Positions 33,295 through 42,680 of a DNA stretch of 43,343 nt are shown in pieces. The stretch is from positions 1-43,343 of the forward strand of contig JAFWVX010000008.1 in assembly GCA_017523785.1 (NCBI GenBank). The letters are read 5' to 3'. Positions within the stretch are counted from its first letter, which is position 1, and the number at the start of each line of letters is the position of its first letter. The notes below the pieces were generated by a model. The model was given only the letters and a program-made list of their open reading frames with translations, made no database searches and was not told the origin of the DNA. The stretch is from Lachnospiraceae bacterium (GTDB lineage: Bacteria > Bacillota > Clostridia > Lachnospirales > Lachnospiraceae). Made by a program: the position numbers and the translations under genes.

Positions 33295-36200
33295 ATGAAA
33301 AGCGTTAAAAAGCGATTAGCAATACTTTTAAGTATTGCAATGGTAATGTGTAGCACATTGCCAAGTTTAGCATCTAAAAGTGATGTTTTAGACGAAACTG
33401 CTGAGTCTAAAGTTACAGAGGAATTGTGTGAAGACTTAGGACAAAATGCTGCTGAAGATATTTTAGACATTAAGACTTTGAGTGAGACTGAAGAAGAGTT
33501 AGAAGAAAAGTTAGCTGAACTAGAAGAAGATCAGGAAGAAAAGATAGACGAGGAACCAGAAGAGGACCAAGAAGAAAAGACGATAGAAGAGATTGAAGAG
33601 GAACAGGAAGAAAATACGGAGATAGAAATAGAAAATGATCTAGATGAAAAAGAAATAGAAAATAATGAAGAAATTGCAGAAGGGTCTGAAACAGAAAAAA
33701 CTGTAGAAGAGACTGACGAAACTTCAGAGATTGATGATACGTCAAAAAGTGAAGAAATCGAAGAGACTACAGAAATAAGTGAGGCAGAAGAGACAAAAAA
33801 TAATGATAATGAAACTACAACAGAAGAAACTTCAAGTGAAAATAAAGAATCATTAGATGAAGATATTGTAAAAGTTGAAGACGAAAATGTCATAGTTAGT
33901 GAAGAAAACTTGCTTGGAGCATCAACTCCTTGGTGCTATTGGTATGTTGATGAAACAGATCCAGAAAATGTAACTATTCATTATAGTAGTACTGAACCTG
34001 CCAATTATAGTTCATACCCATCGGGAAAAAAAGGAAGTGTTAGCGGTACTATGGCTTTACCAAACCCAAGTTCTGCCACTGTAAAACAATCAATTAAAAC
34101 AGCTGTGTTTGATAATGTAATAAATACTTCTGTTTATAGCGGCTGGTTTAATAGTTATTCAAATTTAACTACTATAATTAATCTTTCATATTTAAATGCT
34201 AGTAATGTGACTTCAATGAAAAATATGTTTAAGTCATGCACATCACTTACAAGTATTGATTTTCCAGCTATTAATGCAGAAAATGTAACAAATTTAAGTT
34301 ACATGTTTAGTGGTTGTACAAGTCTTGTTAGTGTAAATTTAAGCCAAGTTACATTTGACAAAGTGGAAGATATGTCATATATGTTTAAAGATTGTACAGC
34401 ACTCACAACAGTCAATTTGTCAGGTGTGTTGTCAAACTCTGTCACAAATATAAATACATCTTATATGTTTCAAAATTGTACATCACTTACTTCAATCGAT
34501 GTTAATTCAATGAATCTTAGCAATGTGTCGAATATGTCAAATATGTTTGAAGGTTGTACTGCACTTGAGTCATTAGATTTTTCAGCTACAAGTATAGCTG
34601 CTGTTAATAGAATTTCATACATGTTTAAGAACTGTATAAATCTTAAAAGTCTTAATCTTAGTAGTTTTAACACATCAAACGTAACTTATAAAACAAATAC
34701 ATTTGAAAATTGTAATGCCTTAATATCGCTTAATCTAAGTCAAAGTTTTGCAAGCATTATAAATGGATTAAAATTAACTGGTAATTGGAAAAAAACGACA
34801 TCAGACACAATATATGAATATACATCTAATAAAACCACTATACCAGCTGAGGCAGCTGAATATGAAAGAGCGTTCAAAATAACATTTGATACTAAAGGTG
34901 GTAATGCAATTACTCCAGTGTTTAAAACATATAACTCAAATTTAGATTTGCCAAATGCTGTGAGGCCTGGATTTACTTTTGAAGCTTGGTATAATGAAAG
35001 TGAGTTAAGTACACCGGTAGCGTCTCCTATTACAGTTACTCAAGATAGAACAGTATATGCTAAGTGGAGTGGTGGTGAAGGCGCTCAACTTATTTACTGG
35101 GGTATAGGCAAGAGCAGTAATACATCTAGTGGAAAGGTAAGAAGATTATATATTGCTTCTAGCGAATCTGGTGTAAGTATCTATAGTACCGAATTTAGAG
35201 GGTCGTTTGCTAATACAGCTGATTTTAATAGTGCGGAAGAAGTTCCATGGCACTTATATAGATCTGAAATTAATTATTTTAGCGTGAGTAGCAGTCAAAC
35301 ATATCCATTAATTTTTAAATCAATGGCATACTGGTTTAAAGATATGACAAAACTTATATATGCATCTGGACTTCAACAATTAACTAGATATAATGATATG
35401 CTTGAAAATATTTCTTATGCTTTTGAAGGTTGTACAAATATTAAATACGCTGGTTTTTATGTAACAAATAATTTAAAAAACATGGAATGCGCATTTAATA
35501 ATTGCAGTAGCATTAAATATGTCAATACATTAAAACGCTCTGGTGTAGCTAGTGATAGTATAAATGTTCAGTTAGAAAGTGGTGGATTTAAAGATGCTTT
35601 TAGTGGCTGCACTAGTCTTAGAAGATTAAATTTGAGATTCTTAGATTTTAGTAGTTACACAGGCGATGTATTTTCTTGTATGGGATTGTCTAATCTTGTA
35701 AGAATAAGAATAAAAGATAGTGGAAATATATTTAGTAGAATTGGTTTAAGTGGTGAATGGTGGGAATATGATTCGGGTAATAAATATACATCAAGTAATA
35801 TGCCAAATAATGTAAGACAGATTAGAAAATATGAAACATTTTCTAATACAATTTACTGGTATGTTCAAGGCAATGAAGTTCACTTATCAAGTTCAAAACC
35901 ATCTAATGCTAACTATAAAGAGGGGCACTATTTTAATGGTGATGAACCTAATGTATATGGAATGCTGCCACTTGATGAGCCAGATGATAGTAGGATAGTG
36001 CTTGATAATAACATTGTGCTTAGAAATGATGCAGGAAGTTCATTCTTTTGTAATCTTGCTAGCGCAAGAGAAATTGTCAATATGAACAAACTTAATACTA
36101 GTGCTGTAACAGACATGGAATCAATGTTTAGTGACATGGCTTTAACAAGTGTTGACTTAAGTTCTTTGGATACAAGAAATGTTGAAATTATGAATTCAAT

Positions 36201-38829
36201 GTTTTTCGCATGTGAAAATCTATCATCATTAGATTTGAGCAATTTTAACACAAGTAAAGTTCTAGATATGGGTTACATGTTTTATGGCTGTACATCGTTA
36301 CAATCATTAGTTTTGACAAGTTTTGATACTTCTAAGGTGCAAACAATGGATGGTATGTTTGGAGATTGCTCGTCAATAACTAGTATAGATATTTCATCAT
36401 TTTCTTCTGCAGGCTTAGAAGATGATGGCAATGGATATAATGATACTTCAATTGATAGTATGTTTTATGCTTGTTCTTCACTTAGAACAATATATGCATC
36501 AGATAGTTTTGACATAACATTTGATTCTAGTTATACATATGTAAGTGGAGATGATATCTTTACTGATTGTGTTCAACTCGTAGGTGGAAATGGAACAAGA
36601 TATAATGAAAATCATGTAGGAGCTGAGTACGCTAGAATTGATGCCGCAGGCACACCAGGATATTTCACTCGTGGAACAGGCACTCCACCAACACCAGTTA
36701 AAGTCTTAACAAGTATCACAGTTAATACTGCTCCAACAAAAGTAAAGTATAAAGTTGGAGAGAGTTTTGACCCTACAGGACTAAAAATAAATTTAAATTA
36801 TGGCATCGGAGCAAGTGAAGTAGTGACATATAATAATTCAACAAGTAACTTATTTTCATTTAATCCATCACTTGTAGATACTTTTTCAACTGCTGGATCT
36901 TCAATAGCAGTTGAAATCACATATAGTGGTAAGACTTGCACTCAGTATGTTGATGTAATTGAGCCACAAACAATTTCGGTAAAGACTGCACCAAGTAAAG
37001 TTAAGTATCTTGTAGGAGAGTGGTTTGATCCTACTGGACTTGAATTGGAGTTAACATATAGCGATAATATTACGAAAGAAACAATACTATATTTGGGTAA
37101 TGAATTTGATATTAGCTTTGATCCATCTAGAGTTCTTGCAATTAGCGATGATCACATTACTATAACATACAATTTTAATGGAAATGATTATTCTTGTAAT
37201 TTAAGTATAAATGTACTTGAATTATCTTCAATTGCTGTGAAGGTTCCGCCTACAACACTTAAATATGCAAAGAGAAGCACTTTCAATCCAATAGGATTAT
37301 CTATTGAACTTACATATAGTGATAATGTAACAAAGGAAACCGTTACATATGCTGGAAATGAAGCATACTTCACATTTAATCCTTCACTCGGGCAGTCGCT
37401 TAATACTGTCGGTAGTTCAATACCAGTGACTATTACATATGGCGGTAAATCTTGCGTTCAAAATATAGAAGTGGTTGAATTGTCGAGTATAGAGATTGAT
37501 ACACCGCCGTCAAAAGTGGTTTACGATGTTGGAGAGAGATTTGACTTGACAGGACTTAAGTTAAAATTAATATATAGTGATTCGTCAAATCAGGTTGTGA
37601 CATATTCAAGTAGTAATTCATCAAGTTTTTCTTTCACCCCAAATACTGCTTATGGCTTGACTTCTGCAGATACAACAATCACAATTAATTATGCGGGTAA
37701 ATCATGCACACAGAACTTGACGCTAAGAGATTTGTCAAGCATTGTTATTAATACAAATCCTACACGAGTAAACTATGCTACGGGACAATCATTAAATCCA
37801 AATGGATTGACATTAACTTTAAATTGGACATATTATACTGTATCAGGAACTACAACTGACTCAAATAATGTAGCCTACAACTCTACAACTCAAAGTAAAT
37901 TTGAGTTTAATCCAAGTGGAGCTCTTATGAGCAGTGGGAATATAACAGTAACTTATGATAGAAAAACTGGAGCAAATCGCCAACCTTCATTTGCAGTTAC
38001 TGTTAGAACAGTTGCATCTATAAGTGTAATTGATAGACCAAATAAAACAACTTATAGAAGTGGAGAAAAATTTGCACCAGCTGGTTTATCTATAAATGTA
38101 GAGTATGAAGATGGAACCGATACAGTAGTTTCTTATTCTTCAGAAAATGCAAGAGACTTTTCATTTAATCCAAGTCCATCACTTAGTTTGAATACTGGGC
38201 ATAGTAGTGTTACTATAACTTATGGTGGAAAGTCAACTAATTTTGCAATATCAGTCATATCTAATAGTTATAGTGGTGGTGGAACTTCTAGCAGTGGAAG
38301 TGGTAGTAGCCGTGGCGGTGGCGGAAGTGGAGGTGGAGGAAATTCAGTACCGCCAGCAGGATATATTCAATATAATAATCAGCCATCTACTACTCAAACT
38401 TCCACAAACAAGCAAATATTAGCAGTTATGAATAGCAAAACCAGTACATGGGCAGTAGATCCAACATCTGGGAAGTGGAAACTTAATGCAGTTGATATGA
38501 ATGGTCAAGCATTATCAGCGTCAAACGGATTCTACTTACTTACAAATACCGTTACTGCAATAGTAAATAATGTTCCAGTTCAAGTTGAAGTTAACAATAC
38601 ATATTATTTTGACGCACAAGGAAATATGGTTACTGGATGGGTTCAGACAGCAGACAATAAGTGGTATTTCTTTGATACTGCTAAGACAGCAGATGAGGGA
38701 AGGATGGTAATTGGTTGGAAAGTGGTTGATGGTGCATGGCGCTATTTCAATGCAGATGGTTCGATGATGGTAAATGGAGTTACACCAGGAGGATTTATAA
38801 TTGGTGCAGATGGAAAGTGGATAGCATAA
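33295..38829 (+). CDS. Giant BspA-like leucine-rich-repeat surface protein with Big_3 domains and wall-binding repeats
   Basis: Secreted modular protein of 1844 residues. Order: signal peptide (1-27, ending LPSLA), a Glu-rich acidic stretch (about 35-200), then a first block of BspA-type repeats (about 290-490; units like NVTNLSYMFSGCTSLVSVNL). An InlB-type beta repeat follows (about 528-592, FDTKGGNAITPVFK to YAKW), then a degenerate repeat block (600-845) and a second clear block (about 930-1080, NTSKVLDMGYMFYGCTSLQ). Six Ig-like Big_3 domains come next (about 1138-1660; heads at bases 36709, 36967, 37227, 37485, 37735 and 38018, each with a VKYxVGExFDPTGL-like start). A Gly/Ser linker (about 1660-1685) and choline-binding-type repeats to the C-terminus (GWVQTADNKWYFFD) end it. 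There is no LPXTG; attachment is likely through the repeats. GGAGG at 33283-33287 fixes the start. Its role is probably adhesion. Confidence 0.93.
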   Translation: MKSVKKRLAILLSIAMVMCSTLPSLASKSDVLDETAESKVTEELCEDLGQNAAEDILDIKTLSETEEELEEKLAELEEDQEEKIDEEPEEDQEEKTIEEIEEEQEENTEIEIENDLDEKEIENNEEIAEGSETEKTVEETDETSEIDDTSKSEEIEETTEISEAEETKNNDNETTTEETSSENKESLDEDIVKVEDENVIVSEENLLGASTPWCYWYVDETDPENVTIHYSSTEPANYSSYPSGKKGSVSGTMALPNPSSATVKQSIKTAVFDNVINTSVYSGWFNSYSNLTTIINLSYLNASNVTSMKNMFKSCTSLTSIDFPAINAENVTNLSYMFSGCTSLVSVNLSQVTFDKVEDMSYMFKDCTALTTVNLSGVLSNSVTNINTSYMFQNCTSLTSIDVNSMNLSNVSNMSNMFEGCTALESLDFSATSIAAVNRISYMFKNCINLKSLNLSSFNTSNVTYKTNTFENCNALISLNLSQSFASIINGLKLTGNWKKTTSDTIYEYTSNKTTIPAEAAEYERAFKITFDTKGGNAITPVFKTYNSNLDLPNAVRPGFTFEAWYNESELSTPVASPITVTQDRTVYAKWSGGEGAQLIYWGIGKSSNTSSGKVRRLYIASSESGVSIYSTEFRGSFANTADFNSAEEVPWHLYRSEINYFSVSSSQTYPLIFKSMAYWFKDMTKLIYASGLQQLTRYNDMLENISYAFEGCTNIKYAGFYVTNNLKNMECAFNNCSSIKYVNTLKRSGVASDSINVQLESGGFKDAFSGCTSLRRLNLRFLDFSSYTGDVFSCMGLSNLVRIRIKDSGNIFSRIGLSGEWWEYDSGNKYTSSNMPNNVRQIRKYETFSNTIYWYVQGNEVHLSSSKPSNANYKEGHYFNGDEPNVYGMLPLDEPDDSRIVLDNNIVLRNDAGSSFFCNLASAREIVNMNKLNTSAVTDMESMFSDMALTSVDLSSLDTRNVEIMNSMFFACENLSSLDLSNFNTSKVLDMGYMFYGCTSLQSLVLTSFDTSKVQTMDGMFGDCSSITSIDISSFSSAGLEDDGNGYNDTSIDSMFYACSSLRTIYASDSFDITFDSSYTYVSGDDIFTDCVQLVGGNGTRYNENHVGAEYARIDAAGTPGYFTRGTGTPPTPVKVLTSITVNTAPTKVKYKVGESFDPTGLKINLNYGIGASEVVTYNNSTSNLFSFNPSLVDTFSTAGSSIAVEITYSGKTCTQYVDVIEPQTISVKTAPSKVKYLVGEWFDPTGLELELTYSDNITKETILYLGNEFDISFDPSRVLAISDDHITITYNFNGNDYSCNLSINVLELSSIAVKVPPTTLKYAKRSTFNPIGLSIELTYSDNVTKETVTYAGNEAYFTFNPSLGQSLNTVGSSIPVTITYGGKSCVQNIEVVELSSIEIDTPPSKVVYDVGERFDLTGLKLKLIYSDSSNQVVTYSSSNSSSFSFTPNTAYGLTSADTTITINYAGKSCTQNLTLRDLSSIVINTNPTRVNYATGQSLNPNGLTLTLNWTYYTVSGTTTDSNNVAYNSTTQSKFEFNPSGALMSSGNITVTYDRKTGANRQPSFAVTVRTVASISVIDRPNKTTYRSGEKFAPAGLSINVEYEDGTDTVVSYSSENARDFSFNPSPSLSLNTGHSSVTITYGGKSTNFAISVISNSYSGGGTSSSGSGSSRGGGGSGGGGNSVPPAGYIQYNNQPSTTQTSTNKQILAVMNSKTSTWAVDPTSGKWKLNAVDMNGQALSASNGFYLLTNTVTAIVNNVPVQVEVNNTYYFDAQGNMVTGWVQTADNKWYFFDTAKTADEGRMVIGWKVVDGAWRYFNADGSMMVNGVTPGGFIIGADGKWIA

Positions 38830-38830
38830 A

Positions 38831-38866
38831 ATAAAAAACGGGTCATGTGACCCGCTTTTTTAGTTT
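38831..38866 (+). terminator. Strong terminator at the end of the long gene run
   Basis: CGGGTCA (38839-38845), a two-base loop and TGACCCG form a perfect 7-bp stem, flanked by AAAAAA and TTTTTT. It is the first convincing plus-strand terminator after the 11262 promoter. Confidence 0.92.
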
Positions 38867-38876
38867 TCTTCAAATA

Positions 38877-39050
38877 TTGGAAGTGTATCTACATATAGCA
38901 AATATTGATGGTCATCATCACTCTCTTGAATATTGTATAAAAGGAAGGCCCTTTTGTTTAGAAGAAGTGAGTAGAGAAGAAATAGATAGGTTGTTAAGTG
39001 AAGTTAAGAATAATGGAAAGTTAATGAAAAGTTTAATTAAATTGTATTGA
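38877..39050 (+). pseudogene. Possible remnant of a gene 3' end
   Basis: An open frame ends at 39050. It reads like real protein in its second half, with IDGHHHSLEYCIKGRPF followed by LEEVSREEIDRLLSEVKNN. The only upstream start codons (GTG 38847 inside the terminator, TTG 38877, GTG 38883) lack a ribosome binding site. It therefore looks like the surviving tail of a lost gene, not an expressed small protein. I do not recognise the family. Chance is a real alternative. Confidence 0.35.
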
Positions 39051-39074
39051 AAAATTAGCAAATTTTGTTATAAT
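39047..39074 (+). promoter_or_regulatory. Promoter for candidate toxin mRNA
   Basis: TTGAAA (39047-39052), 16-base spacer, TATAAT (39069-39074) preceded by TGT (extended -10). Transcription would start near 39081. Confidence 0.65.
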
Positions 39075-39080
39075 ATCTTT

Positions 39081-39198
39081 GGGATATTATTAGCCTAAAA
39101 GGTAGAAAGAAAACGGCGACAGTAAGAGATTACTTTAACCGGGCGGTGATGCCACAAAACTTCCAAGTGTTGCATAAACGAAAGGAGGTGATGTGGAG
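39081..39198 (+). promoter_or_regulatory. Structured leader of the candidate toxin mRNA
   Basis: A leader of about 118 bases without a gene. AGTAA/TTACT (39121-39134) closes a GAGA tetraloop. CGGTGATGCCA (39144-39154) is an exact inverted match to TGGCATCACCG at 39311-39321, on the far side of the coding region. The word GGTGATG appears again across the ribosome binding site (39187-39193). The distal CATCACC could therefore pair with either copy and hide or free the translation start. Confidence 0.5.
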
Positions 39199-39267
39199 AT
39201 GGATAGAACATTCATCATTTGTTATTTGATATTAGTTTTTCTAATCATTCTCGTAACAAAAAAGTAG
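39199..39267 (+). CDS. 22-residue hydrophobic peptide, candidate type I toxin
   Basis: Tiny open frame preceded by AAAGGAGGTG (39181-39190), one of the best ribosome binding sites in the window. The peptide begins MDRTF, has one continuous hydrophobic helix (ICYLILVFLIILV, residues 8-20) and ends TKK. This is the profile of membrane-acting type I toxins of Firmicutes: short, single helix, charged ends. The gene has its own promoter, a long folded leader and a terminator whose stem overlaps the stop codon. An antisense transcript with a strong promoter converges on its 3' end. I found no named-family match by eye (it does not resemble the Fst or TxpA sequences I know), so the assignment rests on architecture. 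A leader peptide or small membrane regulator are alternatives. Confidence 0.6.
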   Translation: MDRTFIICYLILVFLIILVTKK

Positions 39268-39343
39268 CCGACCGATCGCTAATGGTATTGGCTACTTTTA
39301 GCTAAAACATTGGCATCACCGTTAGATTTCTGCCTTTTTCATT
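39257..39343 (-). ncRNA. Candidate antisense antitoxin RNA
   Basis: Predicted RNA of about 87 bases, starting near 39343 from the minus-strand promoter at 39378-39350 and ending in the T-run after the shared hairpin. It overlaps the toxin mRNA 3' region, including the last codons and the terminator stem. It also covers the CATCACC segment able to pair with the toxin leader. The convergent 3' overlap resembles TxpA/RatA and BsrG/SR4 of Bacillus. Confidence 0.5.
39258..39299. terminator. Bidirectional terminator shared by toxin mRNA and antisense RNA
   Basis: AAAAGTAGCC (39260-39269) pairs with GGCTACTTTT (39290-39299), with a 20-base loop. The A-run on the left and T-run on the right allow termination in both directions. 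The stem includes the toxin stop codon. Confidence 0.8.
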
Positions 39344-39349
39344 AACTGT

Positions 39350-39378
39350 ATATTAGCATAATATTTAGTATTTGTCAA
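39350..39378 (-). promoter_or_regulatory. Strong minus-strand promoter for the antisense RNA
   Basis: On the minus strand: perfect TTGACA (39378-39373), exact 17-base spacer, TAATAT (39355-39350) with TGC directly before it (extended -10). It is the only exact TTGACA -35 I noted with good spacing in the window. Confidence 0.7.
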
Positions 39379-39404
39379 ATATAACTCTGAGCCAACGAAA
39401 AAAG

Positions 39405-39622
39405 AAAAAATAGGGACGGACTTAAACGAAAAAATAGGGAAGGACTTAAATATATTTTACACAAAAAAGACATAAAAGCTGTATAAATGTGCTATTTTAT
39501 CAGTGCTAATTTATATATTTACAGTAAAATGTATATTTTTAATTATATTTGCATAAAACCAATTTGCTAAATATGTGCAAAATGTGATAAAAATATGAAA
39601 AAAATAATAAAGTCCGTCCCCA
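39405..39622. repeat. Small inverted-repeat element (MITE-like), no coding capacity
   Basis: Bounded by GGGACGGACTT (39413-39423) and its exact inverse AAGTCCGTCCC (39610-39620). The left end is a 24-base tandem duplication (39405-39428 and 39429-39452, 21 of 24 identical), both copies with a run of A and then TAGGGA. The interior is very AT-rich with no gene. CCATTCATT is repeated twice directly after it (39620-39637). It abuts the truncated sirtuin gene. Confidence 0.5.
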
Positions 39623-39637
39623 TTCATTCCATTCATT

Positions 39638-40132
39638 CTTGCTCTTGCAAAACTTGAAAAAGATGGTAAAATAAAAGCTATAGTCACTCAAAACATTGAC
39701 GATTTGCATCATAGGGCTGGGAATAAAAATATTTATGAGTTGCACGGAACTTCATTTAAGAATCATTGTATGGAGTGTGGGAAGAGTTTTACTATAGAAG
39801 ATATTTTGAAAGCTGATGGAGTTCCTCGTTGTAGTTGCGGCGGTATAATAAAACCTGATGTAGTTTTATATGAGGAGGGACTTGACCAAAACACTATTGC
39901 AAAAAGTATAGATGCAATTAGTAAGGCTGATGTGCTTATAATTTCAGGGACAACATTAGTAGTTCAGCCTGCAGCATCATTTATAAATTATTATAGAGGC
40001 AATAAAATGATTCTCATAAATCTTTCCGAAGTTCCAAATGAAGAAAGGATTGACTATGTGGTCCACTGCAAGGCTGGGGATGTGTTTGGAAAAATGTTGT
40101 TAGATTTAAATAAAAAATTTGAGGAGATTTAG
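39638..40132 (+). pseudogene. Sir2 family NAD-dependent deacylase, 5' truncated
   Basis: C-terminal two thirds of a sirtuin. Reading in frame from about 39638: LALAKLEKDGKIKAIVTQNIDDLHHRAGN, with TQNID and catalytic His in YELHGTS, then zinc ligands CMEC and CSCGG. ISGTTLVVQPAA and VHCKAGDVF follow to a natural stop at 40132. The NAD-binding N-terminus with the GAGxS and PDFR motifs (about 80-100 residues) is absent. The frame becomes unrelated repeat DNA at 39637, with a stop at 39608-39610. No normal start is available (TTG 39704 would cut further into the core), so the product should be inactive. Deletion linked to the adjacent inverted-repeat element is the simplest explanation. Translation through its end may still help the next gene, whose ribosome binding site overlaps it. 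Confidence 0.85.
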
Positions 40133-41747: not shown

Positions 41748-42680
41748 TTAATTCAATAAAGAAAAGTATTGTTGTCTATATTCTAGTGGACTCAATCCTT
41801 TTCTTTTTTTATTTATTCTTTTGTGGTTGTAGTAATTTATATATTTAACCATAGCTGATTTAAGTTCCTCAAGTGTTTTAAAATCTTTTTCATATCCATA
41901 AAACATTTCTTTTTTCATTATACCAAAGAAATTTTCCATTATGCTATTATCCATACAATTTCCTTTTCTGGAAAATGATTGTCTTATGTTTCGTTTTTTT
42001 AACTCGTTTTGATAATAAACTGATTGGTATTGCCATCCTTGATCGGATTGAAATATCAACCCATCTAAATTTCTGTGTTTTCTAAATGCTTTGTTTAGCA
42101 TTCGTTTAGTTTGTTCAAAGTTTGCTTTTGTTGATATATCATAGCTTATTATTGAGTTATCATACATATCTAGTATTGGAGATAAATATATTTTACCACT
42201 TGAAATTCTAAACTCTGATACATCTGTAGTCCATTTTTGATTTGGTTTATCAGTGCTGAAATTTCTAGTATATTGAATTTTATTTGTGTTATTATTTACT
42301 ATGCTGTCTAATAACAAATTCTCTTTATTGTTACCATTATCACCTTTATAAGTATGAAATTTAGAACTCTTTCCCTGAAATGCTTTTAAACTATATTTTC
42401 GCATTAGTTTCTGTGTCTTCTTTTGATTTATATGTATTTCTTTATTTAATTCCATATTAACCCTAATATAGCCGTATCTACAATGGTTTTTATAAAATAT
42501 TAAAGATATTCGTTTTATTAACTCTTTCTCTTCTTTCTCGATTCTCTTGACATACTCAATATGCTTTTTGCTTTTATAATACTCATATGTTGATTTCTTA
42601 ATGTTCGCAACTTTTAAAAGAACCTTTAGTTTATATTTATGCCTTAGTTCATCAATAATTATTACTATTTCTGATTTTTT
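41748..42680 (-). CDS. IS3-family transposase OrfB (DDE integrase), made by -1 frameshift from orfA
   Basis: Catalytic part of the transposase. The DDE residues lie in TTDVSEF, IFQSDQGWQYQ and NSIMENFFGI, with the C-terminal YNHKRINKKRKGLSPLEYR. The first in-frame ATG is 42455, but the frame is open upstream without stops to the orfA slippery run and encodes the expected HTH_21-like N-terminus (HKYKLKVLLKVANIKKSTYEYY and HCRYGYIRV). The A7 run at 42681-42675 reads A AAA AAT in the orfA frame, a classic -1 slip site. The normal product is thus an OrfAB fusion, as in IS150 and IS911. No disabling stop was seen. Confidence 0.9.
   Translation of the reverse strand, partial: KKSEIVIIIDELRHKYKLKVLLKVANIKKSTYEYYKSKKHIEYVKRIEKEEKELIKRISLIFYKNHCRYGYIRVNMELNKEIHINQKKTQKLMRKYSLKAFQGKSSKFHTYKGDNGNNKENLLLDSIVNNNTNKIQYTRNFSTDKPNQKWTTDVSEFRISSGKIYLSPILDMYDNSIISYDISTKANFEQTKRMLNKAFRKHRNLDGLIFQSDQGWQYQSVYYQNELKKRNIRQSFSRKGNCMDNSIMENFFGIMKKEMFYGYEKDFKTLEELKSAMVKYINYYNHKRINKKRKGLSPLEYRQQYFSLLN

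What the first reader, a model, noticed from the sequence alone, without database searches (positions are those of the whole stretch)
39040..39380. Candidate type I toxin-antitoxin locus with foldback-controlled toxin mRNA
Seen: a plus-strand extended -10 promoter and a 118-base structured leader, then a near-perfect ribosome binding site and a 22-residue one-helix peptide ending in KK. The terminator stem contains the peptide's stop codon. A minus-strand promoter with perfect TTGACA, 17-base spacer and extended -10 drives a short converging RNA that shares this terminator. Known: TxpA/RatA and BsrG/SR4 have the same convergent 3' overlap. Inference: the peptide is a membrane toxin and the minus RNA its antitoxin. 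The peptide does not look like Fst or TxpA, so this could be an undescribed family.
Basis: partly seen in the sequence, partly recalled or inferred. Interest (0 to 1): 0.8.

Follow-up and report, generated by a model that had tools for sequence, protein, structure and literature searches.

The report
Likely toxin-antitoxin locus with foldback mRNA
A bacterium carries a tiny membrane-peptide gene and a facing small RNA that together look like a self-poison and its off-switch, and the same layout turns up in many related bacteria.

Summary
In detail: promoters, 118-nt leader, ribosome-binding site, 22-aa peptide (39199-39267, +) and a converging minus RNA are there. The locus recurs in its genus with a constrained frame. 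An RNA model of the minus RNA matches 82 of 397 sampled genomes of the family; a broader one matches 181 of 397. At 73 of 107 hit rows opened, a short hydrophobic ORF ends in the minus RNA's terminator stem. Some relatives encode Pfam Hol_Tox peptides and resemble Rfam BsrG/rli28, so this is best read as a divergent branch of TxpA/BsrG-type loci; the window peptide itself matches no family. The shared terminator is probably half right: it serves mainly the minus RNA, and the plus RNA probably runs to a U-run opposite the minus RNA's 5' end. It can then close 5' to 3' (-85 kcal/mol, z -6.5). Closure is predicted in 65 of 66 loci and is largely locus-specific, which explains why the minus RNA's 5' end copies the toxin leader. 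Transcription and toxicity are untested.

The parts
39047..39074 (+). toxin-mRNA promoter, TTGAAA-16-TATAAT with TG
   Evidence: 11 of 12; relatives
39081..39198 (+). structured toxin-mRNA leader, about 118 nt (start predicted)
39097..39108 (+). leader arm 1 (AAAAGGTAGAAA), pairs with 39327-39338 in the predicted fold
   Evidence: repeated at the antitoxin 5' end
39121..39134 (+). leader hairpin AGTAA-GAGA-TTACT
   Evidence: seen in several genus copies
39142..39153 (+). leader arm 2 (GGCGGTGATGCC): complementary to 39312-39321; in relatives also complementary to the stop-codon region
39152..39196 (+). predicted hairpin that buries the Shine-Dalgarno sequence
39184..39188 (+). Shine-Dalgarno GGAGG
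39199..39267 (+). 22-aa hydrophobic peptide MDRTFIICYLILVFLIILVTKK, candidate toxin
39260..39299 (.). hairpin T1 that contains the stop codon; terminator of the antitoxin RNA, weak terminator for the toxin mRNA
39312..39339 (+). 3' closing segment and U-run (T2), proposed end of the toxin mRNA
39350..39378 (-). antitoxin promoter, TTGACA-17-TAATAT with TG
39257..39343 (-). antitoxin RNA, about 87 nt (ends predicted)
39312..39335 (-). antitoxin 5' motif whose two arms repeat those of the toxin leader

Best explanation
A type I toxin-antitoxin locus of TxpA/BsrG-like architecture. The plus RNA encodes a 22-aa one-helix membrane peptide. Its Shine-Dalgarno sequence sits in a hairpin, and the finished mRNA (to about 39340) folds back: leader arms 1 and 2 pair with the last about 28 nt, keeping it untranslated. 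The minus RNA (about 87 nt, strong promoter) is complementary to the whole 3' end of that mRNA (end of the ORF, hairpin T1, closing segment). The arms of its 5' end therefore repeat those of the toxin leader, and it competes with the leader for the same 3' segment. Pairing would make a long duplex for RNase III and remove the message. If antitoxin supply falls, the message persists and the peptide damages the membrane. Shown by sequence and comparison: anatomy, conservation, coding constraint, foldback potential, largely locus-specific 5'-3' complementarity. Inferred: transcription, the mRNA end at T2, lack of translation when closed, RNase III, toxicity.
For: Genus homologues of the whole locus. 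RNA model hits in 82 of 397 family genomes with R1 and 181 of 397 with R2. ORF with Shine-Dalgarno ending in the hairpin at 73 of 107 rows. pN/pS below 1 in 14 of 15 pairs. Antitoxin promoter 10/12 or better in 59 of 65. Antitoxin hairpins covary: 98 double-change cells against 37.5 shuffled, 0 of 500 shuffles as high. mRNA to 39346 z -6.5. Predicted 5'-3' closure in 65 of 66 loci; own 5'-3' duplex mean -39.9 against -27.5 for swapped loci and -19.1 for shuffled segments; of 25 same-genome pairs 19 own-stronger, 3 tied, 3 cross-stronger. Among RNA relatives 9 of 47 peptides scanned match Hol_Tox, and some loci resemble Rfam BsrG/rli28.
Against: No expression or toxicity data. The window itself matches no Rfam, Pfam or NCBIfam model. 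34 of 107 rows lack a recognised ORF. The own 3' segment is the single best partner of the own leader in only 24 of 66 loci (median rank 2). The antitoxin 5' motif paired with the leader itself is not locus-specific (own rank 31 of 70). The leader-to-stop-codon pairing that is strong in relatives is weak in the window (rank 59 of 71). Burial of the Shine-Dalgarno is only modestly above shuffled leaders (46 of 66 against 43%). Relatedness of loci inflates the coupling statistics. Outside the genus the window-type peptide profile finds essentially one relative in 295 genomes of the order.
Confidence: 0.8

Rival explanations
1. Fst-like version: both RNAs end at the shared hairpin T1, overlap only there, and the antitoxin acts through terminator loops and its 5' motif on the leader.
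For: T1 has a U-rich tail on the toxin strand in 45 of 68 loci. The Fst/par locus has convergent promoters, a bidirectional terminator, repeats, a buried Shine-Dalgarno and a 5' helix (PMC7472228 passages).
Against: In Fst the repeats are direct and give complementary RNAs; here they are inverted and give like-sequence arms. Antitoxin-to-leader pairing is not locus-specific, while 5'-to-3' complementarity within the mRNA largely is. The window's T1 tail is weak on the toxin strand.
Confidence: 0.15
2. The peptide is a small membrane protein with some other role (signalling, stress), controlled by an antisense RNA, and is not toxic.
For: No toxicity test exists. Not every small membrane peptide is a toxin (general knowledge).
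Against: Architecture, predicted buried ribosome-binding site, KK tail and Hol_Tox relatives all fit type I toxins.
Confidence: 0.12
3. The left and right motifs agree because one host factor (RNA- or DNA-binding) recognises both, not because they pair.
For: The motif consensus is strongly conserved across the family.
Against: Variants tend to track the locus, not the genome: of 28 same-genome pairs the own match was better in 18, tied in 5, worse in 5, and the energy test gave 19, 3 and 3 of 25. Coupling is concentrated in the arm columns, with two columns just before arm 1 and, weakly, one loop column also above permutation.
Confidence: 0.06
4. A miniature mobile element whose inverted ends are the motifs, with the ORF incidental.
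For: Several copies per genome, some in tandem or solitary.
Against: Promoters, coding constraint and RNA covariation. Target-site duplications were not looked for.
Confidence: 0.03

Closest known systems
TxpA/RatA, BsrG/SR4 and BsrE/SR5 of Bacillus subtilis (Pfam Hol_Tox PF16935; Rfam BsrG RF01412, RatA RF01776, rli28 RF01492)
   Same: Convergent toxin mRNA and antisense RNA with 3' overlap, buried Shine-Dalgarno in txpA and bsrG, hydrophobic peptide (PMC7430163). The Rfam BsrG consensus structure has a leader helix with the sequence just after the stop codon and an outer 5'-3' helix, the same topology as predicted here.
   Different: Window peptide (22 aa) is outside Pfam Hol_Tox. The antitoxin is about 87 nt against 222, 180 and 163 nt for RatA, SR4 and SR5. 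The arms at its 5' end repeat those of the toxin leader; I did not test whether B. subtilis loci do this. No Rfam match in the window.
Hol_Tox loci on lactic-acid-bacterial and enterococcal plasmids ('putative holin-like toxin')
   Same: An annotated Enterococcus faecalis plasmid locus (L203) has a hydrophobic peptide ending KK before a hairpin with UAACC, and matches rli28 (153.4 bits) and RatA (65.0 bits).
   Different: R2 matches it only weakly (21.3 bits) and two Lacticaseibacillus loci not at all.
Fst/par of pAD1
   Same: Convergent promoters, hairpin shared by both strands, short antitoxin, repeats, 5' helix and buried Shine-Dalgarno (PMC7472228 passages).
   Different: Repeats here are inverted, not direct. 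The peptide lacks the PXXXG(C) motif given for Fst. No profile match.
Clostridioides difficile CD2517.1-RCd8, CD2907.1-RCd9, CD0956.2-RCd10
   Same: Convergent type I loci in Clostridia (PMC6563280 passages).
   Different: Toxins of 50-53 aa without similarity to other type I toxins according to that review; not compared by me at sequence level.

Membership tests
TxpA/BsrG (Hol_Tox) type I toxin-antitoxin | Toxin peptide matches Hol_Tox PF16935 | tested here: not met
   Window peptide: no Pfam match; none over cut-off in 12 genus genomes; hhalign of the window group against a Hol_Tox-type group negative. RNA relatives: 9 of 47 peptides match.
TxpA/BsrG (Hol_Tox) type I toxin-antitoxin | Rfam BsrG, RatA or rli28 match | tested here: not met
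   Window none (L031 none). Relatives: L102 rli28 45.7 bits (cut-off 45) and BsrG 53.5 (cut-off 55), L058 BsrG 44.1, L180 BsrG 36.9.
TxpA/BsrG (Hol_Tox) type I toxin-antitoxin | Convergent antisense RNA overlapping the toxin mRNA 3' end, own strong promoter | tested here: inconclusive
   Promoter, hairpin and their conservation support it, but no transcript was observed.
TxpA/BsrG (Hol_Tox) type I toxin-antitoxin | Toxin mRNA with long-range 5'-3' helices and buried Shine-Dalgarno | tested here: inconclusive
   Predicted strongly: z -6.5 in the window, closure in 65 of 66 loci; no structure probing.
TxpA/BsrG (Hol_Tox) type I toxin-antitoxin | Toxicity of the peptide and RNase III decay of the duplex | not testable with these tools
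   Needs experiments.
Fst/Ldr (par) type I toxin-antitoxin | Direct repeats DRa/DRb giving complementary 5' regions | tested here: not met
   Repeats are inverted, so the RNAs carry like-sequence arms.
Fst/Ldr (par) type I toxin-antitoxin | Fst-type peptide (PXXXG motif, profile) | tested here: not met
   No proline or glycine in the peptide; no Pfam or NCBIfam match.

The most novel reading that the evidence does not exclude
A Clostridia-wide, largely undescribed branch of type I toxin-antitoxin loci, present in close to half of sampled genomes of this family, in which three RNA segments are locked together: the toxin leader, the toxin mRNA's 3' end and the antitoxin's 5' end. The antitoxin is a mimic of the toxin's own leader. 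The message is closed by its leader and the antitoxin competes for the same 3' segment, so the arms can drift per locus and insulate paralogues from one another.
Probability: 0.4. Interest if true: 0.75.

Novelty: new variant of a known kind. Interest (0 to 1): 0.55.

Why it matters
A 2019 review that I read in passages says a large homology search found known type I toxins in few clostridial species (TxpA-like and Fst-like in C. bolteae, Fst-like in C. asparagiforme), with further feature-based candidates in several Clostridium species, and that knowledge was restricted to C. difficile (PMC6563280). An RNA model rather than a peptide model finds this layout in close to half of 397 sampled genomes of one family, with peptides too short and diverse for protein profiles. 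If the foldback-and-mimic logic is right, it gives a simple, testable rule for how several paralogous toxin-antitoxin copies in one genome could avoid cross-talk, and a way to annotate such loci.

Tried and rejected
Antitoxin 5' motif acting directly on the toxin leader: duplex energies do not favour the own pair (own -20.6, cross -20.0, median rank 31 of 70); set aside as the reason for the likeness. Wobble direction as a test of strand: left/right mismatches were T/C 24 and G/A 13 against C/T 8 and A/G 4, permutation expectation 86.8 to 61.0 (L077, L104, L106, L113 and L125 left out because they were shifted in the alignment); leans towards pairing in the toxin mRNA but is also explained by looser hairpins on the left, so not decisive. 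Leader to stop-codon pairing: strong in relatives (52 rows, 89.7% of cells paired against 86.7%, 16 double changes against 4.1) but weak in the window; kept as a secondary feature. Known RNA family: none reached a gathering score at these loci (the one hit is a cobalamin riboswitch elsewhere in L074). Window-type peptide in viral contigs: none by an exact-pattern scan; broad motif in 2 and 10 viral stretches. Relatives of the common peptide type in phage records: 2 hits at E 5, not informative. Window-type peptide beyond the genus: profile over 295 genomes of the order gave 35 genomes at E 0.1 or better, about the number expected by chance; one clear relative, a 21-aa MKNFIICYLILIFFILIIIKK in G049 (L017, also hit), which lacks the second half of hairpin T1. 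Solved structures: 3 weak hits, E 0.089 or worse. Literature: searches showed no paper on such loci in Lachnospiraceae among the rows listed (20 of 23, 20 of 512, 19 of 19, 20 of 78, 20 of 2,065, 8 of 8 and 20 of 58); most subscription papers are not held, so this is not proof of absence.

Rows dropped: the 107 rows hold 106 different loci, L116 repeats a copy in L058, and 21 of the weaker hits listed were not opened. One search left out L111, L116 and the second L058 copy. One search left out 4 loci without a clear leader match and 20 of other subtypes. One search found no arm by pattern in L093, L094, L119 and L051. A7 used 52 distinct rows chosen by hand from those, without L079 and L132, with L119 added and the BsrG-like rows shifted by one base to keep register. 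A3 holds 47 of the 68 distinct peptides. One search left out L072, L093, L098, L102, L111 and L116.

Full report
What is there. The plus strand has a promoter (39047-39074), a 118-nt leader, GGAGG 10 nt before ATG 39199, and a 22-codon ORF ending KK-TAG at 39267. The stop codon lies in a hairpin with 10-nt arms (T1, 39260-39299). The minus strand has TTGACA-17-TAATAT with TG (39378-39350) and would give an RNA of about 87 nt ending at the same hairpin. Taken alone the promoter matches are not beyond chance (8 against 6.0 expected).

It is a repeated, conserved unit. The window is contig C32 of a 1.2-Mb, 56%-complete genome. The same genome has two further copies of the minus RNA with T1 but without an ORF (L002, L003/L044). 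Among 60 genomes (own included) 9 gave a DNA match at E 0.001 or better: six of the genus and three outside it. Of the three, L016 and L018 are short matches of 25-36 bases; L017 (another family of the order) encodes a 21-aa relative of the peptide but lacks the second half of T1. A model of the minus RNA built from 11 sequences (R1) gave 14 hits with E of 1e-7 or better in the 12 genus genomes: 10 with an intact ORF, one cut by a contig end (L045), three solitary (L002, L044, L040). Six of the 12 genomes have such a hit. Contigs with the window-type start region bear the titles Lachnospiraceae bacterium UBA3633 and uncultured Clostridiales RUG14839 and RUG816; that RUG stands for rumen genomes is recalled. 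Among six window-type ORFs pN/pS ran from 0.13 to 0.59 in 14 pairs and was 1.0 in one.

The wider family. R1 matched 82 of 397 sampled genomes of the family (own included) at E 0.01 or better; about 4 would be expected by chance if the rough E-values hold. I opened 107 hit rows: 73 have an ORF of 20-35 codons (72 ATG, one GTG) with a Shine-Dalgarno and a hydrophobic stretch ending inside or beside the hairpin; 34 do not. A broader model (R2, 63 sequences) matched 181 of 397 genomes of the family, 159 of 392 of the order (own family included) and 37 of 398 of the phylum sample at E 0.001 or better. Of 27 hit positions opened from the last two samples and from viral contigs, 19 showed an ORF and 8 did not. 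Of 47 distinct peptides given to Pfam, 9 match Hol_Tox; the window peptide does not. Some Hol_Tox-type relatives resemble Rfam BsrG and rli28 (L102: BsrG 53.5 bits, below its cut-off of 55, rli28 45.7, above its cut-off of 45; L058: BsrG 44.1). An annotated Enterococcus plasmid Hol_Tox locus matches rli28 and RatA well above cut-off, while R2 sees it only weakly. The window is thus tied to the TxpA/BsrG class through RNA, not through its peptide; hhalign of the two peptide groups is negative. The window-type peptide is close to genus-restricted: over 295 genomes of the order its profile gave one clear outside relative, L017.

The two RNAs share a 5' motif. Leader and antitoxin start with the same two arms (window: GGTAGAAA and CGGTGATGCC in the leader; GGCAGAAA and CGGTGATGCC in the antitoxin). 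Over 70 loci the antitoxin motif matches its own leader with mean score 15.5 against 10.1 for other leaders and 8.7 for shuffled ones; the own leader is unsurpassed in 23 of 70, median rank 2. Position by position the coupling is concentrated in the arms (12 of 16 arm columns above permutation; the rest hardly vary). It is also above permutation in two columns just before arm 1 and weakly in one loop column, and absent after arm 2 (46 loci). Among 28 same-genome pairs the own combination was better in 18, tied in 5, worse in 5. Relatedness of loci inflates such figures; the flank after arm 2 is the internal control.

Why alike. Like sequences on opposite strands mean that the leader is complementary to the plus strand opposite the antitoxin's 5' end, so a plus RNA that runs past T1 can close on itself. 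Four results support this. T1 has a U-rich tail on the antitoxin side in 68 of 68 loci (6 or more T of 10) but in 45 of 68 on the toxin side; the window has 8 against 5. A T-run follows the right arm on the toxin strand in 63 of 68 loci, and an A-run precedes the right arm in 57 of 66 but the left arm in 22 of 66. The window mRNA to 39346 folds at -85.0 kcal/mol, z -6.5, 0 of 200 shuffles as good, with both arms paired to the 3' end and the Shine-Dalgarno in a hairpin; ended just past T1 at 39306 it is -61.5, z -3.7. Across 66 loci the own 5'-3' duplex averages -39.9, swapped loci -27.5, shuffled -19.1; 60 of 66 lie below the first percentile of shuffles; the own 3' segment is the best partner in 24 of 66 and among the best five in 53; the minimum-energy fold closes in 65 of 66 (L132 does not); of 25 same-genome pairs 19 were own-stronger, 3 tied, 3 cross-stronger. 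The Rfam BsrG consensus has the same topology.

A second long-range contact. In relatives the leader's GGCGGUUA is complementary to UAACCGCC, the stop codon plus the first bases of T1; several BsrG-like loci have GGGUGACU with AGUCACCC instead. On 52 hand-aligned rows 89.7% of cells pair against 86.7% in shuffles, with 16 double changes against 4.1, and slid versions reach at most 63.9%. In the window this contact is imperfect. The antitoxin's own hairpins covary strongly.

Mechanism. Shown computationally: anatomy, conservation, coding constraint, closure potential. Inferred: the closed mRNA is untranslated; the antitoxin, complementary to its whole 3' end and repeating the leader's arms, binds that 3' end in place of the leader; RNase III removes the duplex, as reported for txpA and bsrG (PMC7430163 section 6 part 1 and passages; PMC3531473 passages); the peptide acts on the membrane. 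A direct action of the antitoxin on the leader is not supported by specificity. Burial of the Shine-Dalgarno is only modestly better than with shuffled leaders.

Comparison and novelty. The Fst/par locus has a similar plan but direct repeats and another peptide (PMC7472228 passages). A review of clostridial type I systems says an earlier homology search found TxpA-like and Fst-like sequences in C. bolteae, an Fst-like one in C. asparagiforme, and otherwise feature-based candidates (PMC6563280 passages). The searches listed no paper on this family of loci in the rows shown; that is no proof. I rate it a new variant of a known kind.

Noticed in passing
39704-40132 (+): SIR2 family protein with the first half of the domain missing (profile positions 89-180 only); by eye the sirtuin frame continues upstream to about 39630 and stops there.
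   Followed up: partly
39413-39621: AT-rich stretch bounded by inverted GGGACGGACTT / AAGTCCGTCCCC (by eye); 39428-39628 has a 94% copy at G000:C29:4309-4510 and a short piece at C31. It abuts the broken SIR2 gene and may have caused the break.
   Followed up: partly
41748-42455 (-): Integrase core (rve) protein, a transposase or its remnant.
   Followed up: no
33295-38829 (+): 1844-aa protein with DUF285 and BspA leucine-rich repeats, Ig-like and choline-binding repeats, followed by a terminator-like hairpin on both strands at 38833-38860.
   Followed up: no
L058 1501-2397 (G081:C1:1653069-1653965): Three tandem copies of a BsrG-like toxin-antitoxin unit at about 401-bp spacing; G009:C176 holds an intact copy and a solitary antitoxin.
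   Followed up: partly
L002 (G000:C25:59406-59490) and L003/L044 (G000:C28:879-959): Solitary antitoxin RNAs in the window's own genome; L002 still carries the last codons of a peptide before T1.
   Followed up: partly
L145, L146, L152, L154: Four viral contigs with different sample numbers carry an antitoxin of equal model score (66.6 bits); L145 and L146 encode the same 31-aa peptide. This suggests that phages carry such loci.
   Followed up: no
L017 1505-1570 (G049:C23): 21-aa relative of the window peptide, MKNFIICYLILIFFILIIIKK, in another family of the order, after a GCGGTAGG-type leader but without the second half of hairpin T1.
   Followed up: partly
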